Part shown: in pieces, positions 2,569 to 59,856 of the stretch
Numbering within the stretch: position 1 is the stretch's first letter
Layout of the letters: every line of letters begins with the position of its first letter
DNA from: Sphaerolaimus hirsutus
Lineage: Eukaryota > Nematoda > Chromadorea > Monhysterida > Sphaerolaimidae
Direction: 5' to 3'
Assembly: GCA_964036195.1 (NCBI GenBank)
Contig: OZ038460.1
Location: 17,859,504 to 17,923,503, forward strand
DNA: 64,000 nt
Made by a program: the position numbers and the translations under genes
The notes under the pieces: model-generated
The model's database searches: none
The model's input: only the letters and a program-made list of their open reading frames with translations
Told to the model about the DNA's origin: nothing

Positions 2569-2773
2569 TCAACTCTCCCGCGTGGGCGTCTTATCATCGT
2601 TGCACTTTGAAGTCGCCGCCGCGCCGCCCAGACCAATGTCGTCAGTGTTCTGATTGCGGTCGCCGCTGGCCGCTGCCACTGCGGCGTGCAGTTCGCACAG
2701 GCAGGCGGCCACGCGCAAGTGCAGCCGCGACAGATTGGAGGCCGCTCGTTGGAGTGATGGGTGCCGCGGAGAA
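2569..2773 (-). CDS. homer: Homer terminal exon 14
   Basis: It has 67 codons and a stop, in the order SPRHPSLQRAASNLSRLHLR, VAACLCELHAAVAAASGD, then a polar acidic tail ending KTPTRES. The LHLRVAACLCELHAAV stretch has heptad character like exon 13 VHSVLCELESHL and would close the coiled coil. The acceptor is a C run plus CAG, and the incoming phase matches exon 13. GC content and codon pattern are typical of coding sequence here. Confidence 0.65.
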
Positions 2774-5700
2774 CTGGGGGGGGGTTGTGTTTGACAGGGG
2801 GGTATAGATACCCGACCCGATTTTTTGGACCCGAAACCAACATAACATTTTTTACAGATTTTTTTGCCAAAGTATGACATTTACAGGGTGCACGGTGAGC
2901 TGTCTCAATTACTAACCCACTGCTACTACTTGCACAGCGGGTTTACTTGCACAGAGAGCCACATGTTTCCCTCACCGACCTTCTACCCATCGCTTCGCAA
3001 ACTCCACACGCGCAGTTGGCGGCTACCAAAGGCCACTGGCAGGTGCGCTTAGATGCGCCATGTATCTGGTGCCCCAATGAGCGCGCTGAGCTGCTGGGGG
3101 CAATTCCGCACCCTGTAAAATGCCCTGTAAATGTGAAATTTGATGGAAAGTGTCAAAAGTCATGTAAAATGTCCTGGAAAATGGCAAACTAGGTAGTTTG
3201 CAATTTCCCAGAGCATTTTACATTACTTTAGACACTTTGCATGACATTTTACATTTCACAGGACATTTTACAGGGTCCAGGATTGGCACCTGGTTGGGGT
3301 GGCGCCCACGTGGTGATCGGGGGTGTCTGCCGTGTGCTGGGGGCTGTGCAGGGGGGTGCCTACGGGCAGCACCAGGTGTGATTCTAGCTCGCATAGGACG
3401 CTGTGCACCTGAGGGGGGGGGGGGGGTTAATTGGGATGATTGTCTGTTTTTGGAATTTTGTGATGCAATGAATGCGAAAAATTGAATGTAAATTTAGATG
3501 GTCTCCAAAATATCCACCATCCGTTTGCCACGTTATGTCACACTTTTGGTTGTCACTTGACTAAGATGTTTTTTGTAACTATTCTGACTCTCGGTACATT
3601 TAGTAAACCTGGCAAGGGGCCACTTCCACATTAAAGTGACAACAAAGCAGACATTTAAGTGCCATATGAAATGACAAGTAAAACTTCATCACTTCTCAGT
3701 TTCAATCTTCTCAGTATCACCTCTTACCACCTGGCAAACTGCAATTAGCCCCAGAGGCCAGAAATAACCCTCCAACAAACTTCATGCATATCAACTTTTT
3801 GTTCTTGTCTGTTTCCAGCCTGGGTGATCAGTTCCCTGAGTCTACTCAGCAACTCTTCCAAACTGTTCGCACTTTCTGACATGTTTCTGGTGCTGGCGTC
3901 CTGGTGCTGGTACCTGGCTGAATTTGGTGCGGTGTTACCGTGGTCTGCGTTGGTGTGGTAAAAGGTAACCTATGTGTAATACGATAAATCTTCAATTTTG
4001 CATTAAACAGTACGATTTAAACTGAAATTTGCAGAAACAGTAAATAAAGTTAAGTACCGTAAAAGAAATAATAAGTAATAAAGTAAAGAAACAGTTGGTA
4101 AATCGTATATTTGCGCCCTGCGGTAAACAGTAAGGCACGAATGGAAATTTCTGGTATAAATACAGTATGGCATCAGTAAATCTAAGATTTGCGGTAAACA
4201 GAAACAGTATGTAAAATGTATTCTAGCAAACAGTGCGGTATTGTGAATCTTAGAATTTGCGGTAAACCGTACGCTAAAACTTAAAATTTCCGGTAAACAG
4301 CATTACAAATCTGAAAATGCCAAATGGTAGCGATCAGTCCGCCTACATGCAGATAAATATATGCGCAGCTCTGTCTGTGACATTTAAGTCTGTTTCAAGG
4401 GCAAGTTAATCAGGGGGCAGTTCCAAGCCCTGTAAAGTGTAAAGTAGAGTGTCAAATGTAAAGTCAAATGCAAAGTAAAGTGTCAATCAAAAAAAAGGAT
4501 TTTATTACTGAACTTTGCATGACAATTGACACTTTACTTTACATTTGACTTTACATTTGACACTTTACTTTGCATTTGACTTTACGTTTGACACTTTACT
4601 TTACACTTTACAGGGCTTGGGATTGGCACCAGGGGTATTTTCTGAACACACTACTGGCGTTGTTTGATAATGGATATTGCTGGCTCTATTCCAAATAAAG
4701 TTCCAACAATACATCACATTTTTAATCAACCACACTTCACCACCAAATAAACCTACTCACCTCTGCCCCCACCAATAAGCAGCCCAGCGCCGACTCCGCC
4801 CACCAGGTGCACAGGGGCGCCGCCAGCGGCCGCGTGTCTCGGGCTGGCGCTGGCGCTTCTGCCCTGCAGCTGTGCGTGGTTCTGGTCCAGTCTGGGGGCA
4901 CTCCCAGACCCTGTAAAAGACCCTGTAAAGTGTAAAAGACCCTGTAAAATATCATGTGTCATGTAAAAGACAATGTTAACTGTCAAATGTCATGTAAAAT
5001 ACCCTGTATCCAAATCTTATTTTATAGTATTCTTATCTAATGTTTTGAATCCAATCTTATGTCAAAAAGTAAGATTTGGATACAAAAACATAACATTGGG
5101 ATACGATAAAATAAGATTTGGATACACATAACACTTCACTGGGCTTTTTACATGACACATGACATTTGACAAAGTATTTTACATGACAAATGACATTTTA
5201 CTTGGTCTTTTACACTTTACAGGATCTTTTACAGGGTCTGGGAGTGGCACCTGATGTAGCCCATGCGCGCCAGCGTGGCTAAGTGCTCATTGGCCAATTG
5301 CAAACGGTGCAGCTCCTTTTCCCATTGTTTTGCATTGGCGGAACTATTGGGGGATTTTTGTTTTTTATTATTTGTTTTTGTTCAGGTGCTAGTTCCACAA
5401 CTAGAGAAGTGTTGAGAAAAGTTGTAGGTAGGTGTGGTTGTAAGTGGTGATCTAAGTGACAGTCACTTGACACTTCCCTTGAGTCTTACCACTTTTGTGA
5501 CACTTGTCCAGTTGCGGAATTGGCAAAAAGTACTTTGGACCTGAGAAGTATACCTTTGCTTGAGTGCGCTCTTCAGCCGAGCATTTTCCATTAACACTTG
5601 GTATTGTTCCGCCGGTGATAAACTGCAGCTGCTTTCAGCAACTGGTGGGGGTGGCTGCAATGTTTTATTCCAGCTTTTTCAGTTTCTCAAAAAGCTACAT

Positions 5701-8700
5701 CCTTTAGTTGACAATCGGCGAGTGGTCAACTAAAAAATCTATCGTCAACACACATTGGTTGACGGAAACACAAAATTACTTAGTTATTTACGACATATTT
5801 AGTTGATGGAGATCAATTATTCACGATAAACATTACCTAAGTAGGTATCAAGTATCAACTGTTAACCGAACTGCTTTCAAAATAGATTTTTCAGTTGACT
5901 GCTAAGTAACAGTCAACTATGTAGTATGTGTAGCCACATAATTATATTCATAGACAAAACATAATGCACAATTAAATAATTATCTACTCACCATAACATC
6001 GGCCCACATAGGATTATTGTCAATTGCGTCCGAAAATCGGGAATCGCTTTCATCTATGTTGTGGTTACATTCGCGTTTTACAAGAGACTCTGATATTTTG
6101 CCTGTTAGGACGTGTGTTTTGTGGATACTATTTTGCACTACACACACTACCTACTTTTGCACTGAAATTTCTGAAGAAAATTGGAAAATTTATAAATCAG
6201 CTAAGAACCCATGTCAGTTCATCGGAATGAAGTCTGTCAACTACTGTTGATGGAGATTAGAAATGAAAAAGACTCATGATTTAAACTCCAATGCATTCCA
6301 AACTAATGTAGGAGTTTTCAAACTTTTTTAAAGAAATTTGTAGAAAACTATTGTGTGGGGACTTTAGGTTACAAAAAATTGGTCACTGGAGAAGTGATGT
6401 AAAGGTGCCTAGCATTGGTGCCTAGTCCCTGAACAATGGCAAACGCTTCTAAAAAATTTAAGTTGCAGCACTTTTTACATCACTAGTTTTTAAACTGAAA
6501 AGTTTTAATAATGTTTACCTGATTGTTTATTGATTCCGGACAAAATCTGCTCCTTGATCTGGTCAAATCGACTCAGAAACTGTGTGAAAAATTTGCTATT
6601 TAGAATAACTTTGACGTTTTCCAACATTTTCCAAGCATAAATGGAATTAGGGGTGGCATTTTAGAGGGGGTCCAGCAAACCTCCAATATGGCATCAAATT
6701 TGGCCGACGTACAACAGAATAGGGGATAAACGTTTGGCGGACCCCCCCCCCCCCAAAAAAAAAGCCACCCCCCAATTCCATCTACCGCATATCCTCGAAA
6801 AAGACCCCAGCTGAGATTTTTTCAGCAGAGTTTTTGAGGGGGGGGGGGGGGGGTTATTTTTTCCTCCGAATTACATTATGTATCTGTTGTTGCTGATATA
6901 GGCTAATATTCCGTTGTATTTTTCGTTTCACACACTGCACTGCATTTGCAGCACAGGCGAAGCTTTATTTGGTCTGTCTAACGTCATTGAATGTTTTTTT
7001 AGATTGAGCTAATATACCTATATTCCACCTATTACAAAGTGGGGAGTTATTCAAGTGTGGGTGTTATTCAAGGGGGGTTATTTTTTCTCACTCGGCCAAC
7101 AGGGGGAGTTATTCAGGGGGTCTTTTTCAGGGGCTTATTCGAGGATATACGGTATGTTTCCAGGTTACTCACTTTATGCACATCGGCATCATTCAGGAAT
7201 CCCAAACCGTAAACGCACGGTTTGCTGTGGTGCGGTCTCGGTACCGGTGCATTTTTACCATCACTAGTAGCCTCCCCACTCGCGTTAGCAGTCTGGTGTT
7301 GACTAGCATTTGAAAGCTTCGCTCCGCCCGGGTCGCAGAGATGTACAAATCGACCCGTGGCCCGTTTTACTATAGTTGACCGGCCCACGGAAAGATTGAG
7401 AATTGGCTGCGGGTGGGATAAGCAATTTGATTGAATTTGTTGATTTACTTATTAAATTCGACCGCAGCGGTTCCTCATGTTAAAGTACGACTCATTTTTC
7501 GGACAAGTAAATTGTTGACAACTGTGTCAAGTGACAACGAAATTTGTAGCCGAAAATGAGTTTACCGTATTTCCTCGAAATACCCCCCGGGGGGTGATTG
7601 TTTCATAGTGGTCCCGAGAGGGGGGGGTTAAACGAGGGGGGGGGGTATTTCGAGGGGGGGGTTATTATTTCACAAGAAAATTTTTGAAAACCAAGTACGA
7701 AATAGTCGTCTGAAACGTACGCAGACGTCGAAAAATGCAACAAAAACCGCCATTTATAAGGTTCTGTAGACTAATATTAGTATGTAGATGGTATGTACAC
7801 TGTTCTAACGTGACACTGACATTGTTTTAACGTGTGTTCTGCAGTACACAGAACGCAAACTGCAGTATTTGTCATGTACGTTCCCTTTACACTCAATTTG
7901 GGGGGGGGGTATTTCGGGGGGGGGGTATTTCGAGGAAATACGGTACATGTCACTTATAATACTGCGAATGAGTCAGTGAGTGGCGCCATGGCGCCGTAAA
8001 AATAGCACCAAAACTGTTAGTCTCCTGGTAGTGTAATTAATGACGCCAATTATCTTTGGCGCCCTTGGTGCCCCGCGCCATTTTTTGGCGCTTTTTCATC
8101 ACTACTATCGGAATTGGCTTCAAAAAACCACCCAAATAAATTTCACGATTCAAACAAAATTAAAAATCACCCACCTTCCCGCCATCGACGCAGATCAGCC
8201 GGTACAAATGTCTCCTTCTATCGTAAAACATGTGCACCGGGGCCGGTTTACTCGTAGCCGGAATCCACGGACGGATATTTTGATTATTTTCCTGATTACT
8301 CTGTTGTTCCGGTTGGGTTTGTTGAATGATTTCATTCTGATTGTGGTTGTTGTTTTGGTGGGCAGCTGGGGGCACTTCCAGACCCTGGAAAATACCCTGG
8401 AAAATGTCAAATGTCATGCAAAGTGGCAAAAGTCATGTAAAATGCCCTGTAAAATGGAAAATGTAAATTCGCCTTTTTACAGAGCATTTAACATGACTTA
8501 GACACTTGGACTTGGCATGACATTTTAGAGAGCAATTTACAGGGTCTGAGAGTGGCACCTGAAGAAGTTTGAGCTTTGCTGGCGCATGGATTCAGCGTGT
8601 AAATGCGGCAGATTACGCTGAACAGCGGCTGTTCTCTGGGTGGAGTGGGGGGTTATTTGAGTACTGTTAGCGATTGATTGAAAAACATATTTTTATTATA

Positions 8701-11700
8701 GGACTTTTCATTACTCGTTTATTTTCAAGTGTTACCATCATGTGTCTTTCCCTACACTAAACACTTTACCAACAAACAAAGTTGTCACTTTAATTCGCAC
8801 TTAATCACCTCGGCCGTTTGCACATGAGCAAAGTGGCGGCCAAGAACTTCTGCAGCTCCAAGGGACTCATGCCCGGCCTCAACGAGGACAAGTCGAAGTT
8901 ATCTTCCCCGCTGGAAGTCGACTCGAAAACGGCCGGTCGAAATCCCTGCTGCGCTGCAAACACATCGGTGTATTTCGGCGGCAAGGCGCCACCAACGCCA
9001 ACGCCAACGCCCGGCGCCATGGCGTCGGAATGGCGCCAGGCGCCAGCGCCATTCGGCGCCAAAGTCGCGTTGGTGCCCACGTGGCTCCAATTGGAAGCGA
9101 CCGAAGAATTGTCGTTGCAATGGTTCGATTTCCCGCCCACTATTCTGGACCGGACGCAGTAGGCGCCTGTGAGCACTTCCAGACCCTGAAAAGACCCTGT
9201 AGGCTGTAAAGTGTCAAAGACCCTGTAAAATGTCATGTGTCATGTAAAATACCCTGTAAAAAGTCATGTGTCATGTAAAAGACCCTGTAAAATGTCATGT
9301 GTAACCAAATCTTTTTTTATCGTATCCAAATCTTATGTTTTTGTATCGAAATCTTATTTTTTGACATATGATTTGGATACAAAAAGATAAGATTTGGATA
9401 CGATAAAATAAGATTTGGATACACATGACACTTTACAGGGCATTTTACATGACATTTAACACTTAACAGCGCTTTTTACATGACATTTGACATTTTACAG
9501 GGTCGTTTACCGACACATGACATTTTATAGGGTCTTTCACAAAACACACATGATATTTTACAGGATCTTTGACACTTTACAGGGTTTTTTACAGTGTCTG
9601 GGAGTGGCACCGGGGCCGGGGCTATTTGCACTCGAATGTGAATGGTTGCTGTGAAGATCTGTTGATGCGGGCCGGTGGCAAGTGACTTTTACTGGGCTGG
9701 GCGCCACTGCTACTACGCGCGGTCTGCGGGTGGTCACTTTTTTAAATACCTGTTTTTATTATTGAGATTACGGTAGATGGTTTTTTTGGTGATGTGGTTT
9801 GAAGCGCCGTGGTTGGTGATGCTTAATCAGTGAAAGACTTTGGAAGGTCAGAAATTCAAGAAGTACTTTCAAGTTTTTTTTTAAATTTTCATTTTACAGA
9901 TACCGCTTTATTTTAATAAATTTCCTAAATTTAATTTAATTTAGGCGCCAACTTCTTATCTTGGCGCTTTCAAACCACTTTTGGTAATAATAAATGCAAA
10001 TTTGGCAAGGCGCCAACCTTCTCTGCGGTGTATCCGGCTCCCTGGAGTCCATTTTAGGTGATAAAGCGATTTCTCAGAAAATTGTGCTGTGTTGGCGCGG
10101 TGAAATGGAATGTTTGAAGCAAAATAAATATCAAATGACCCTGCTGCAGCCTGCAGAGACGATAAATAAAATATACGTAGGTATGTACAGTAATTTGTTT
10201 GTGGGAACCCTTTCGAATATAGTATGCATATAGTAATTGGAATGAACACTGGCTTTCGAAAAAATGTGACCGTATTTTGATAAAAAATGCACGTGAAAAA
10301 TTATGCACCAAATTGAAACGTAATAAGGGCAATCAAATGTGAAAAGAAAAAATAACATTTTTGGATTTTGATCAGATGAGATATGGTAGAGTGTGCGGTG
10401 AGTTGACTATGTGAATTGTAAAATAGTGTTTCAGTGTGCGTTCACTCATATTTCTTTGTTTCGCGAAGTCTGCTGTATAAACGTCATTTCATTTTTTGTC
10501 CTAAATAATCATGTATCGACTTAACTATGCACGGTTCAAAAACAAATAAGACAATTGCTTTGTGTTCTATTTTTTATGTGTATTTATACTCCGTGGACCG
10601 CATGCTTTGCTTTTTTCTGAACGAAACACTCCATCATGACGTCATCGTCGATAAAAAATTTAGAAAAAAAACATCTGTCGCCTACACGCGACTGCGTTTC
10701 TTTTAATTTTTATTTTATTTTTATGAATGTGTGTGCACACTGCACAAGTATCCTGCTCGCGCATTATCGACCAAGACAAGTAATCATGGGTGTATTTATA
10801 CCACAGTTGTTAAAATGTACGTACATTTACTCGAAAAATATGCGTACGCGAGTACGCGGTAAATACATTTACATATACTTTTCAAAAAAGTAATGTACTC
10901 ACTTTTACGCGTTCATTTTAAAAGTACTCGCGTACAGAGAAAATGTATTTTTTGTTGCTAAATCACTATTTTCTGTTGCTAAAATACGAAAATTTTGAAG
11001 AAATCATACAATATTTCTAAAATAGACTAAAAAATCACTAAAGAATGACATCCATTATGTCTTCAAGTGTAAAACTAACTCTCACATGTAAAAAAGTAGT
11101 AGCTTTTACGTTTTCCGGGGAAAAATACTCGCTTTTACATTTTCCCGGGGAAAAAGTATTTTACTTGCATTTACGCAGTAAATAAAAAGTATTCTACATT
11201 TTCAATACTTTTTGGTGAATAAAAAATAAATACTTACATTTATATATACTTTTAAAAAAGGTTCAGTAATTCTAACAACTCTGCCGCAAAGCCAAAGTCA
11301 TTGTGCCTACACACACTACTTTTCACAATGACTTCGTGTGAAAACTGGAATTTTTTCAAATGCAAATAAATGAACACGGTTGAATGTTTTTATAAAATTT
11401 TAATTGGAATTAAAATTAAAGAATGTTAAAATTGAAATTTTTACAACTGAAACACATATAGCACACAAAAAGAGTAGGCTGGATGTCACAATGTCGCCAT
11501 TTCAGTTTTCACAGAAGTCACGGTGAAAACTAGTGTGTGTAGACCCATTTTAACAGTAAAATTGCCAAATAACACAATTTCAATCAAACGAAGTACGCAA
11601 GTACGCGGTAAATACATTTACATATACTTTTTGAAAAAGTAATCTACTCACTTTTACGCGTGCATTTTAAAAGTACATGCGTACATAGAAAATGTATTTT

Positions 11701-33814: not shown

Positions 33815-34000
33815 GTGCCAATCCCAGACTCTGTAGGATGCCCTATAAAATGTAAAATTTCATGCAAATGTCAAAACTCATGTAAAATGCCCAGCAAAAT
33901 GGCAAAGATTTGCCACCTTCCAGGGCACTTTGCAAGACTTTAGACACTTTGCATGTCATTTGACATTTTACAAGGCATTTTACAGGGTCTGGGACTCCAC
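33815..34000 (+). mobile_element. family-1 element
   Basis: It reads CTG then GTGCCAATCCCAGACTC ... GGGTCTGGGACTCCAC then CAG, so on the plus strand it has an intron-like GT...CAG form. A micro-ORF MNSDDATCNN with a GTGAGT donor lies just upstream (33738-33768), but no frame joins it convincingly to the far side. Confidence 0.75.
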
Positions 34001-35106
34001 CAGAATCACCAGTGTTAGTTGGATTTAGCCACACTTACTACAGAAAGTTGTGCAGATGGAATGATTGACCCACCTGAAGGTGAAAAGTATGGTATATTCC
34101 AAAGCACAATGGCAAATATGGTGTGTAAAATTTTTTTTACATTTACGTTTTTTTTACGTATTCCTTGGTATTTTAAAAATACCTTACGTTTTAGTATTTA
34201 TACTTTTTATTTGGAAACGGTATTTACGTTTATGTTTACGTTTTCCAAAAATACCAGTATTTGCACAACTCTGATGTATCCCTACATACTTCTATGTACC
34301 GCATTTCCTCGAATTACCCCCGGGGGGTTTATTTTCTCAATGTGGAGATTTTGGGGTGGTTTAAACGAGGGGGGGGGGTTTCAAGGAAATATGGTGGTTG
34401 GATTTCTATGGAGTTTCTGCATTTATATCCCATAAAAACACAGAAGCATGCATTATCATTCTCTGTAAACTCCCACATGCTTCACCTATCTTCAATGATA
34501 AGGATCCTATAATTTGACCATACCATGATATCCTTTTGATTGTGATTTAAATCCCCCTTGGGGCATAAACCATGATTGGCGTGACTGAACAAATAAACAT
34601 AAATCCTCCAACTGAGTTTTGTATGCACTTTTCATCACGGGTTCTTTGTGTCCTTTCAAACTTGTGTAATGCACTAGGCACTTGATCATGCTGATACTTC
34701 CACACACATCACCATGCACATGTAACTAAAAAGTATGAATAGTCTTCAAGTGGATTTTTGAGAACTATTTTGAAATGGTTTGTTTGGAGAAGTGTCAAGA
34801 AGCATCCACATGAAGATGTGCGTGTTTACACACACATTTGTTATGCACCCACAAAAAAGAGAATGGCACCCTCCAATAGAATGGCAGGTAAAAAGTAGAC
34901 AAAAAGTAGAATGGTCCTCTTCTATTAGAATAAATATGGTACTCTTGTTTCTCTGTGTTCTAAATAAAAACACTCATCATGGGTTTGAATATTCCATTAT
35001 CATGTGCACCTGTTTATATTATTTTAACCCAGAGATTCCTAAATTTTCTGCGTTGAACTGTGTTCCCTTGCCATCTTCAATGTGTTATCCTTGTACCCTG
35101 GACGCA

Positions 35107-56914: not shown

Positions 56915-57088
56915 GGCACACTCTCAGACCATGTAAAATGCCGTTCAAAATGTCATGCAAGCAAAGTGTCAATCCAAAGTCATGTAAAAAAGCCTGTAAA
57001 ATGACAAACACGAAATTTTACATGATTTTTCACTTTTGCATTTTATTTGACTCTTGACACTTCATTTTACAGTGTCTGGGAGTGGCAC
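56915..57088 (-). mobile_element. family-1 introner-like element with exact CTG flanks
   Basis: It is flanked by CTG on both sides. Minus-strand form: CCCAG|GTGCCACTCC...GTGTGCC CAG|T. Removing it joins two open stretches (57089-57132 and 56818-56911) into a 45-codon frame. Whether this is a real gene is unclear. Confidence 0.75.
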
Positions 57089-59660: not shown

Positions 59661-59856
59661 GGCCACCACTCCCCAACCCTGTAAAATAAAAGATGTCATG
59701 CATAGTGTCAAAATGCATATAAAATGTCATGATAAATGTATTTAAAATATAACTAAAAAAACAGAATTATATTGTGACCTGACATTTTCCAGGTGTTTAC
59801 ATTACTTTTGACAGTTTGCATGACATTTTACATTTTTCAGGGTCTGGGAGTGGCAC
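59661..59856. mobile_element. family-1 element, intergenic
   Basis: Tips are GGCCACCACTCCCCAACC and GGTCTGGGAGTGGCAC, followed by CAG. The interior has CATGACATTTTAC words. No exon is visible nearby. Confidence 0.7.

What the first reader, a model, noticed from the sequence alone, without database searches (positions are those of the whole stretch)
2774..9610. Introns of the Homer gene are made by transposable elements (introners) with CAG target duplications
Seen: introns 9167-9610, 8366-8558 and 4892-5250 coincide with short elements whose tips are GTGCCACTCC at the donor and AGTGCCCC-CAG at the acceptor. The intron ending at 2774 starts with the same tip. Two copies are framed by CAG exactly, and the third has lost one side. 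Splicing them out keeps one open frame. Known: introners are mobile elements that create introns, and a 3-bp CWG duplication with G-rich tips is typical of PIF/Harbinger. Inference: insertion at CAG gives CAG|GT...CAG|, so the element supplies GT and a C-rich tract while the target copy supplies AG.
Basis: partly seen in the sequence, partly recalled or inferred. Interest (0 to 1): 0.95.

Follow-up and report, generated by a model that had tools for sequence, protein, structure and literature searches.

The report
Jumping DNA that makes animal introns
In this unnamed animal-like genome a short jumping DNA element has landed inside working genes and appears to be cut out as a ready-made intron, which lets us see new introns being born and, in some copies, a splice signal apparently improved by one letter change.

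Summary
Window 9723-2569 (minus) is a 13-exon Homer-like gene. Three of 12 predicted introns are copies of one TIR element end to end; a fourth begins with one; the spliced frame is open. The 19-base tip occurs 1399 times genome-wide, 1124 after CAG or CTG; reversed-pattern control 0. Exact excision restores conserved proteins across junctions elsewhere: PRPF8, carnitine acyltransferase, trypsin, COMM, lipase, CHGN, 7tm_2. Paralogous empty sites confirm insertion. This is an introner. CWG duplications and a GGG tip fit the NuwaI group of the PHIS superfamily rather than classical TWA PIF/Harbinger (PMC4482050). New: the element is polar, so CAG sites give GT-AG but CTG sites give GT-TG. CTG-left copies have CAG on the right in 19 of 53; CAG-left copies have CTG in 7 of 91 (p 7e-5, gene duplicates not removed), as if T>A repairs the acceptor. 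One CTG/CTG copy interrupts a conserved CHGN domain. Not shown: RNA splicing, species, absence in relatives, transposase.

The parts
9170..9610 (-). Introner copy 1 (441 bp), flanks CCG/CAG; predicted intron 9167-9610 between exons A and B
   Evidence: tips and flanks; frame and borders
8369..8558 (-). Introner copy 2 (190 bp), flanks CAG/CAG; predicted intron 8366-8558, inside the EVH1/WH1 region
   Evidence: Homer match
4895..5250 (-). Introner copy 3 (356 bp), flanks CAG/CAG; predicted intron 4892-5250 in the C-terminal part
3097..3289 (-). Introner copy 4 (193 bp), flanks CAG/CAG; supplies the donor of predicted intron 2774-3289, whose acceptor lies beyond the element
4414..4629 (-). Related copy (216 bp), flanks CTG/CTG, inside the ordinary predicted intron 3945-4760
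2569..9723 (-). Homer-like gene, 13 predicted exons: 9723-9611, 9166-8809, 8635-8559, 8365-8175, 7406-7173, 6579-6519, 6101-5992, 5654-5554, 5343-5251, 4891-4761, 3944-3820, 3408-3290, 2773-2569 (5' start not found; intron 3409-3819 has a GC donor)
   Evidence: PDB Homer, Pfam WH1
56915..57088 (-). Further copy with CAG/CAG flanks; its surroundings were not searched for a gene
33815..34001 (+). Further copy with CTG on the left and a degenerate right end
59663..59856 (-). Further copy with CTG on the left and a degenerate right end

Best explanation
A non-autonomous, polar TIR element (56 of 87 measured copies are 150-206 bp; the Homer copies are 190-441 bp) inserts into CWG sites and duplicates the three bases. 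One tip reads GTGCCACTCC and the other, read inward, GGGGCACTCC. When the element lies so that GTGCCA leads on the coding strand of a CAG site, the gene reads CAG|GTGCCA...TGCCCC CAG|: the element brings the 5' GT and a C-rich stretch, and the second CAG brings the 3' AG. Exact removal leaves one CAG and the old protein. Inferred detail: TTTAC in the inner part of the same TIR, 23 bases before the exon, may serve as branch site, which would explain why the nearer TTTACAG and GGGAG are passed over. At CTG sites the 3' end is TG; such copies either are spliced poorly or by a TG acceptor, or acquire AG through one T>A change in the right-hand repeat. Shown: element, tips, duplications, empty sites, copy number, frame and domain continuity, and the right/left asymmetry. 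Inferred: splicing, branch site, the T>A route, mobilisation by a NuwaI-type (PHIS) transposase.
For: Tip counts: 1399 GTGCC tips, 1129 GGGG tips, controls 0. Flanks: CAG 605 and CTG 519. Of 132 paired tips in the 99 loci and window (113 after removing repeats), 100 (86) are GT/GG and 0 (0) are GG/GG (the loci were chosen by GT tips). Empty sites: the L024 copy (CTG) against L044 with 0 of 40 mismatches, L023 with 1 and L022 with 2; the L008 copy against L030 with 3. Retention would break genes: 108 of 118 GT-tip copies hold stops in all three frames. Domain continuity after exact excision: PRPF8 E=6.4e-79, no gap at the junction (L049); carnitine acyltransferase E=1.8e-16, no gap at the junction to CROT; trypsin E=1.5e-14 and COMM E=6.6e-5; CHGN E=2.4e-15 and 5.5e-13, acid lipase E=2.4e-27, 7tm_2 E=2.2e-7. 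Open frame of at least 25 codons on both sides of the junction: 32 of 42 CAG/CAG copies against 566 of 1960 random junctions, 28.9%. Right-end asymmetry: 84 CAG..CAG, 7 CAG..CTG, 19 CTG..CAG, 34 CTG..CTG; p=6.8e-5 for 7/91 against 19/53, and p=5.7e-5 for intact matched ends, 84/605 against 34/519.
Against: No transcript was available. Only 20 of 34 CAG/CAG junction peptides, picked by eye, were scanned in Pfam and 3 of 20 reached the cut-off. Open frames are also common on the antisense strand of these GC-rich flanks (23 of 42) and at CTG/CTG copies (8 of 10); CAG-left copies without a matching right triplet have them in only 8 of 20. So open frame alone does not prove intron status. Two other AGs, TTTACAG and often GGGAG, lie 19 and 9 bases before the terminal CAG. 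The pattern counts include duplicated genes (for example two PRPF8 copies), so their p-values are too small by an unknown amount. The fourth Homer intron does not end at its element.
Confidence: 0.9

Rival explanations
1. The elements landed later inside introns that already existed, near their borders.
For: It seems to have happened in this gene: the copy at 4414-4629 lies inside predicted intron 3945-4760, and the fourth Homer intron is longer than its element.
Against: In three Homer introns both splice borders coincide with the element tips and the duplicated bases. Exact excision also restores conserved protein at the junctions in PRPF8, CROT, trypsin, COMM, lipase, CHGN and 7tm_2.
Confidence: 0.04
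2. The exonic copies are unspliced insertions in pseudogenes or heterozygous damaging alleles.
For: No RNA; allele frequencies unknown. L055, a duplicate of L054, carries an in-frame stop (seen when reading).
Against: Copies sit in PRPF8 and other conserved genes with intact frames on both sides; 108 of 118 copies hold stops in all frames; right ends are better kept at CAG than at CTG copies.
Confidence: 0.04
3. The introns spread as RNA, by reverse splicing, not as DNA.
For: Intron borders and element borders coincide.
Against: Terminal inverted repeats, 3-bp duplications at CAG and at CTG, empty sites, and a copy inside a MITE-like repeat and inside an intron.
Confidence: 0.02
4. The CTG..CAG class comes from CAG insertions whose left repeat mutated A>T, or from neutral change, not from acceptor repair.
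For: CTG..CAG and CAG..CTG differ by one base each from a matched pair and both exist.
Against: Neutral change at equal rates predicts equal numbers of CTG..CAG and CAG..CTG. Seen: 19 against 7 genome-wide and 10 against 2 in the 125-element sample, pooled without the shared copy 29 against 8, p=7.5e-4. Some sample pairs carry degenerate tips and could be mis-paired, and gene duplicates were not removed.
Confidence: 0.25

Closest known systems
Introners of Chrysochromulina sp. (PMC9860276, Fig. 2C legend read)
   Same: Element carries the 5' splice site and takes the 3' splice site from the target
   Different: Those have 4-bp duplications and no evidence of TIRs; here 3-bp CWG duplications and TIRs of about 23 bp
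Symbiodinium introners (PMC9860276, Fig. 2B legend read)
   Same: TIRs and short duplications, DNA-transposon type
   Different: There the 3' site comes from the element and the 5' site from the duplication; here the reverse
NuwaI transposons, PHIS superfamily (PMC4482050, section 7 read)
   Same: CWG duplications, TIRs of 12-61 bp usually starting GGG, reported from animals only
   Different: The section read describes two-ORF autonomous candidates and names no intron role; our element is short, and one tip is GTG rather than GGG
TG 3' splice sites in human genes (PMC2374985, abstract and passages read)
   Same: TG used as acceptor with an AG nearby; distance limit 28 nt, and here TTTACAG lies 19 nt upstream
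   Different: Human TGs are alternative sites only; here a TG end would have to serve most transcripts of a CTG/CTG copy, and no RNA has been seen
Fritillaria borealis non-canonical introns (PMC13326754, passages read)
   Same: An animal genome with many introns off the GT-AG rule; introner transposons with weak splice sites are named there as a possible origin of splice-site divergence
   Different: Homer here has 11 predicted GT-AG introns and one GC-AG; only the CTG class would be off-rule

Membership tests
Introner (TE that creates introns) | Many similar introns with similarity reaching both splice borders | tested here: met
   Three predicted Homer introns and further genes; borders predicted, not seen in RNA
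Introner (TE that creates introns) | Signs of mobility: duplications, empty sites, high copy number | tested here: met
Introner (TE that creates introns) | Spliced in RNA | not testable with these tools
   No transcript data; frame and domain continuity only
Introner (TE that creates introns) | Intron absent from orthologues without the element | not testable with these tools
   No related animal genome held; one search says G000 has no relatives here
NuwaI / PHIS transposon (MITE of) | CWG target duplication | tested here: met
   1124 of 1399 tips preceded by CAG or CTG; empty site at CTG
NuwaI / PHIS transposon (MITE of) | TIR usually starting GGG | tested here: inconclusive
   One tip is GGGGCA (1129 exact tips), the other GTGCCA (1399 exact tips)
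NuwaI / PHIS transposon (MITE of) | Related DDE transposase sharing the tips | tested here: inconclusive
   163 DDE_Tnp_4 matches exist; the one locus read, L099, shows no such tips; 0 of the 15 C1 matches listed lie within 10 kb of a tip printed, but these print only 100 places each and exact tips only
Classical PIF/Harbinger | TWA target duplication (PMC4482050 passage) | tested here: not met
   Duplication is CWG

The most novel reading that the evidence does not exclude
Because the element has polarity and its target CWG reads CAG or CTG depending on the strand, about half of all insertions are born as GT-TG introns. The spliceosome of this animal tolerates them, using TG at the second step with the upstream TTTACAG of the TIR as the first-step AG, so that they persist in conserved coding exons (CHGN gene, L083 2551-2715) and later mature to GT-AG through a single T>A in the right-hand target copy. 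That would be a two-step, one-mutation route from transposon insertion to canonical intron, visible at both stages in one genome.
Probability: 0.35. Interest if true: 0.82.

Novelty: new variant of a known kind. Interest (0 to 1): 0.66.

Why it matters
Where new introns come from is an old question. A survey of 3,325 genomes found introners in only two groups among animals and land plants, both of them animal (PMC9860276, parts 1-3 of 7 of the text read). An animal-like genome with over a thousand exact tip copies of one element, with ready-made, failed and apparently repaired splice sites side by side, makes the birth and maturation of introns directly testable by RNA-seq and by comparing individuals. 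It would also link introners to the CWG-inserting NuwaI/PHIS transposons, a link that I did not find in print: a full-text search for introner with Harbinger gave one paper, PMC8476143, seen in the listing only; NuwaI itself was not searched by name, and the library lacks most subscription journals.

Tried and rejected
Species: not identified. Chitin_bind_4 gave 0 matches, which speaks against an ordinary arthropod, and Glyco_hydro_6 gave 0; the tool warns that nothing rang in its control genomes either, so both absences are weak.

Autonomous partner: L099 is a PIF/Harbinger-type transposase locus of an abundant family (163 matches in all, more than 100 of those listed covering nearly the whole model), but I saw none of the introner tips in it; rejected as the source on present evidence. 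Its ends were not mapped.

Coding-strand model: a codon model trained on the CAG/CAG flanks called 35 of 41 CAG/CAG copies sense when each was left out; at score above 6 it was 13 sense to 2 antisense, against 72 of 990 random places above 6. The training frames were themselves chosen on the sense strand, so this leans that way. Of 20 CTG/CTG rows it put 7 sense (two are paralogues) and 2 antisense above 5. The sense excess at CTG copies is suggestive only. An earlier model trained on long open frames did not separate the strands well.

CTG/CTG acceptor at GGGAG (adds 9 nt, in frame) was considered; several CTG/CTG copies (L083, L090, L096, L080) have GGGAC or GGAAC there, so it cannot serve all. 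An apparent excess of copies without that AG in the CTG class is confounded by subfamily.

PDB search of the L054 CTG/CTG junction peptide: no match. Ten of 15 CTG/CTG peptides in Pfam: 0 of 10 above cut-off (L096 Glyco_transf_11 at 21.7 bits against a cut-off of 23.9). In one search, 6 of 10 peptides reached no cut-off, among them three CTG/CTG ones (L090, L082, L008).
Full report
1. The observation. The window lies in an unnamed 348-Mb assembly (G000:C16:17859504-17923503). On the minus strand a gene runs from 9723 to 2569; I could join 13 exons into one open frame ending in a stop. Its N-terminal part matches Homer EVH1 domains in the PDB (Homer 3, E=3.6e-8) and Pfam WH1 (E=8.9e-5). All 12 predicted introns end in AG; 11 begin with GT and one with GC. 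Introns 9167-9610, 8366-8558 and 4892-5250 are copies of one element from tip to tip plus one target copy; intron 2774-3289 begins with a fourth copy (3097-3289) but ends further on. A related copy (4414-4629) sits inside an ordinary predicted intron.

2. Genome-wide reality. The exact 19-base tip GTGCCACTCCCAGACCCTG occurs 1399 times, reversed control 0. It follows CAG 605 times and CTG 519 times, so 1124 of 1399 tips sit at CWG. The other tip, GGGGCACTCCCAGACCCTG, occurs 1129 times. In 98 fetched loci and the window, 94 non-redundant exact-tip copies were parsed; 42 had CAG on both sides and 10 had CTG on both sides; for 7 no right end was found; of the 87 lengths 56 lie between 150 and 206 bp, range 98-783, the longest two possibly mis-paired. 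The loci are places on contig C1; 70 of the 98 were taken because they carry CAG and 20 because they do not, so they are not a random draw. With looser tips, 132 pairs were found: 100 GT/GG, 8 GT/GT, 0 GG/GG; after removing repeats 113, with 86, 6 and 0. The element is therefore polar, as far as loci chosen by GT tips can show.

3. Insertion. Searching 125 parsed copies for their empty site in the fetched loci and window found three with candidates. The L024 copy (CTG/CTG, 222 bp) is absent from three paralogues (L044 0, L023 1 and L022 2 mismatches of 40), and the L008 copy is absent from a repeat in L030 (3 mismatches). The third, L085, lies in a common MITE-like repeat and its flanks are not a clean duplication.

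4. Introns, not just insertions. Removing the element plus one triplet restores conserved proteins through the junction: PRPF8 at TEDP/DLPAFYYDP, E=6.4e-79, no gap at the junction; carnitine acyltransferase, Pfam E=1.8e-16 and CROT E=1.8e-15, no gap at the junction; trypsin E=1.5e-14 and COMM E=6.6e-5; acid lipase E=2.4e-27 and gastric lipase in the PDB E=2.4e-20; 7tm_2 E=2.2e-7 and two junctions in one CHGN gene, E=2.4e-15 and 5.5e-13. Counts: 3 of 20 CAG/CAG peptides reached the Pfam cut-off (20 of the 34 printed, picked by eye); 0 of 10 CTG/CTG peptides; 4 of 10, a set picked after reading the peptides. PRPF8 was found through the PDB, not Pfam. 108 of 118 copies have stops in all three frames, so retention would usually truncate. 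Open frames of at least 25 codons on both sides were found at 32 of 42 CAG/CAG copies against 566 of 1960 random junctions, but also at 8 of 10 CTG/CTG copies and on the antisense strand of 23 of 42; CAG-left copies with another right triplet reach it in 8 of 20.

5. How it works. CAG|GTGCCACTCC...TTTACAGGGTCTGGGAGTGCCCC CAG|. The element gives GT and a short C-rich stretch; the duplicated CAG gives AG. The terminal CAG, not the earlier TTTACAG (19 nt before) or GGGAG, fits the proteins above; use of TTTACAG would add 19 bases and shift the frame. TTTAC, 23 bases before the exon, is a plausible branch site; that is inference from the sequence.

6. The CTG half. A polar element at CTG has TG where AG is needed. 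Four spanning patterns (element length about 175-205 bp) gave CAG..CAG 84, CAG..CTG 7, CTG..CAG 19, CTG..CTG 34. Mismatch is far commoner on CTG-left copies (19 of 53) than on CAG-left copies (7 of 91), p=6.8e-5, and intact matched ends are found more often at CAG (84 of 605) than at CTG (34 of 519), p=5.7e-5. Duplicated genes are counted more than once, so these p-values are too small by an unknown amount. The simpler contrast, 19 against 7, has p=0.029 alone and 7.5e-4 when pooled with the 125-element sample (10 CTG/CAG against 2 CAG/CTG, one copy shared). I read this as selection for AG at the 3' end. CTG/CAG copies with conserved coding on both sides are in CHGN, lipase and 7tm_2 genes (L083, L094, L084). 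One CTG/CTG copy, in the same CHGN gene (L083 2551-2715), lies in frame and the Pfam match runs through it (weaker PDB match); at 164 bp plus 3 it would shift the frame if retained. Either it is recent and harmful, or it is spliced in some non-standard way, TG use being the simplest. Human TG acceptors exist, but only with an AG within 28 nt (PMC2374985, abstract and passages read); here TTTACAG is 19 nt upstream. This stays a hypothesis.

7. Kinship. Introners that bring GT and borrow the 3' site from the target are known (Chrysochromulina, PMC9860276 Fig. 2C legend). CWG duplications with tips usually starting GGG mark NuwaI of the PHIS superfamily, reported from animals only (PMC4482050); classical PIF/Harbinger duplicates TWA. 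A Harbinger-type transposase family is abundant (163 matches), but the one copy that I read (L099) does not show these tips, and 0 of 15 listed C1 matches lie within 10 kb of a printed tip. The source transposase is unknown.

8. What is not known. No RNA, no species name, no relatives. The organism is animal-like (Homer, CHGN, 7tm_2; that these point to animals is recalled); Chitin_bind_4 and Glyco_hydro_6 gave nothing, a weak hint only.

Noticed in passing
L049 and L050 (G000:C1 near 22,176,832 and 22,195,635): The PRPF8 exon region, with its introner, is present at least twice, 96% identical over 2.3 kb: a core spliceosome gene carrying an introner and duplicated.
   Followed up: partly
L099 (G000:C1:20512600-20516200): An abundant PIF/Harbinger-type transposase family; most listed matches score nearly alike and share four TGA inside the match, perhaps an intron.
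   Followed up: partly
window, about 1845-2110, 2175-2440 and 7560-7945, and other loci: Another MITE-like repeat ending TACCGTATTTCCTCGAAATACCCCCC, often with long G or C runs; one introner-like copy in L085 has landed in it.
   Followed up: no
L022, L023, L024, L044: Related gene copies sharing one introner (flanks CAG/CCG); L024 alone of the four holds a second copy at CTG.
   Followed up: partly
window 8365-8175: The Homer EVH1 domain carries an asparagine/glutamine-rich insert, absent from the PDB Homer chains, right after the introner intron.
   Followed up: no
window 3409-3819: The predicted Homer intron has a GC donor.
   Followed up: no
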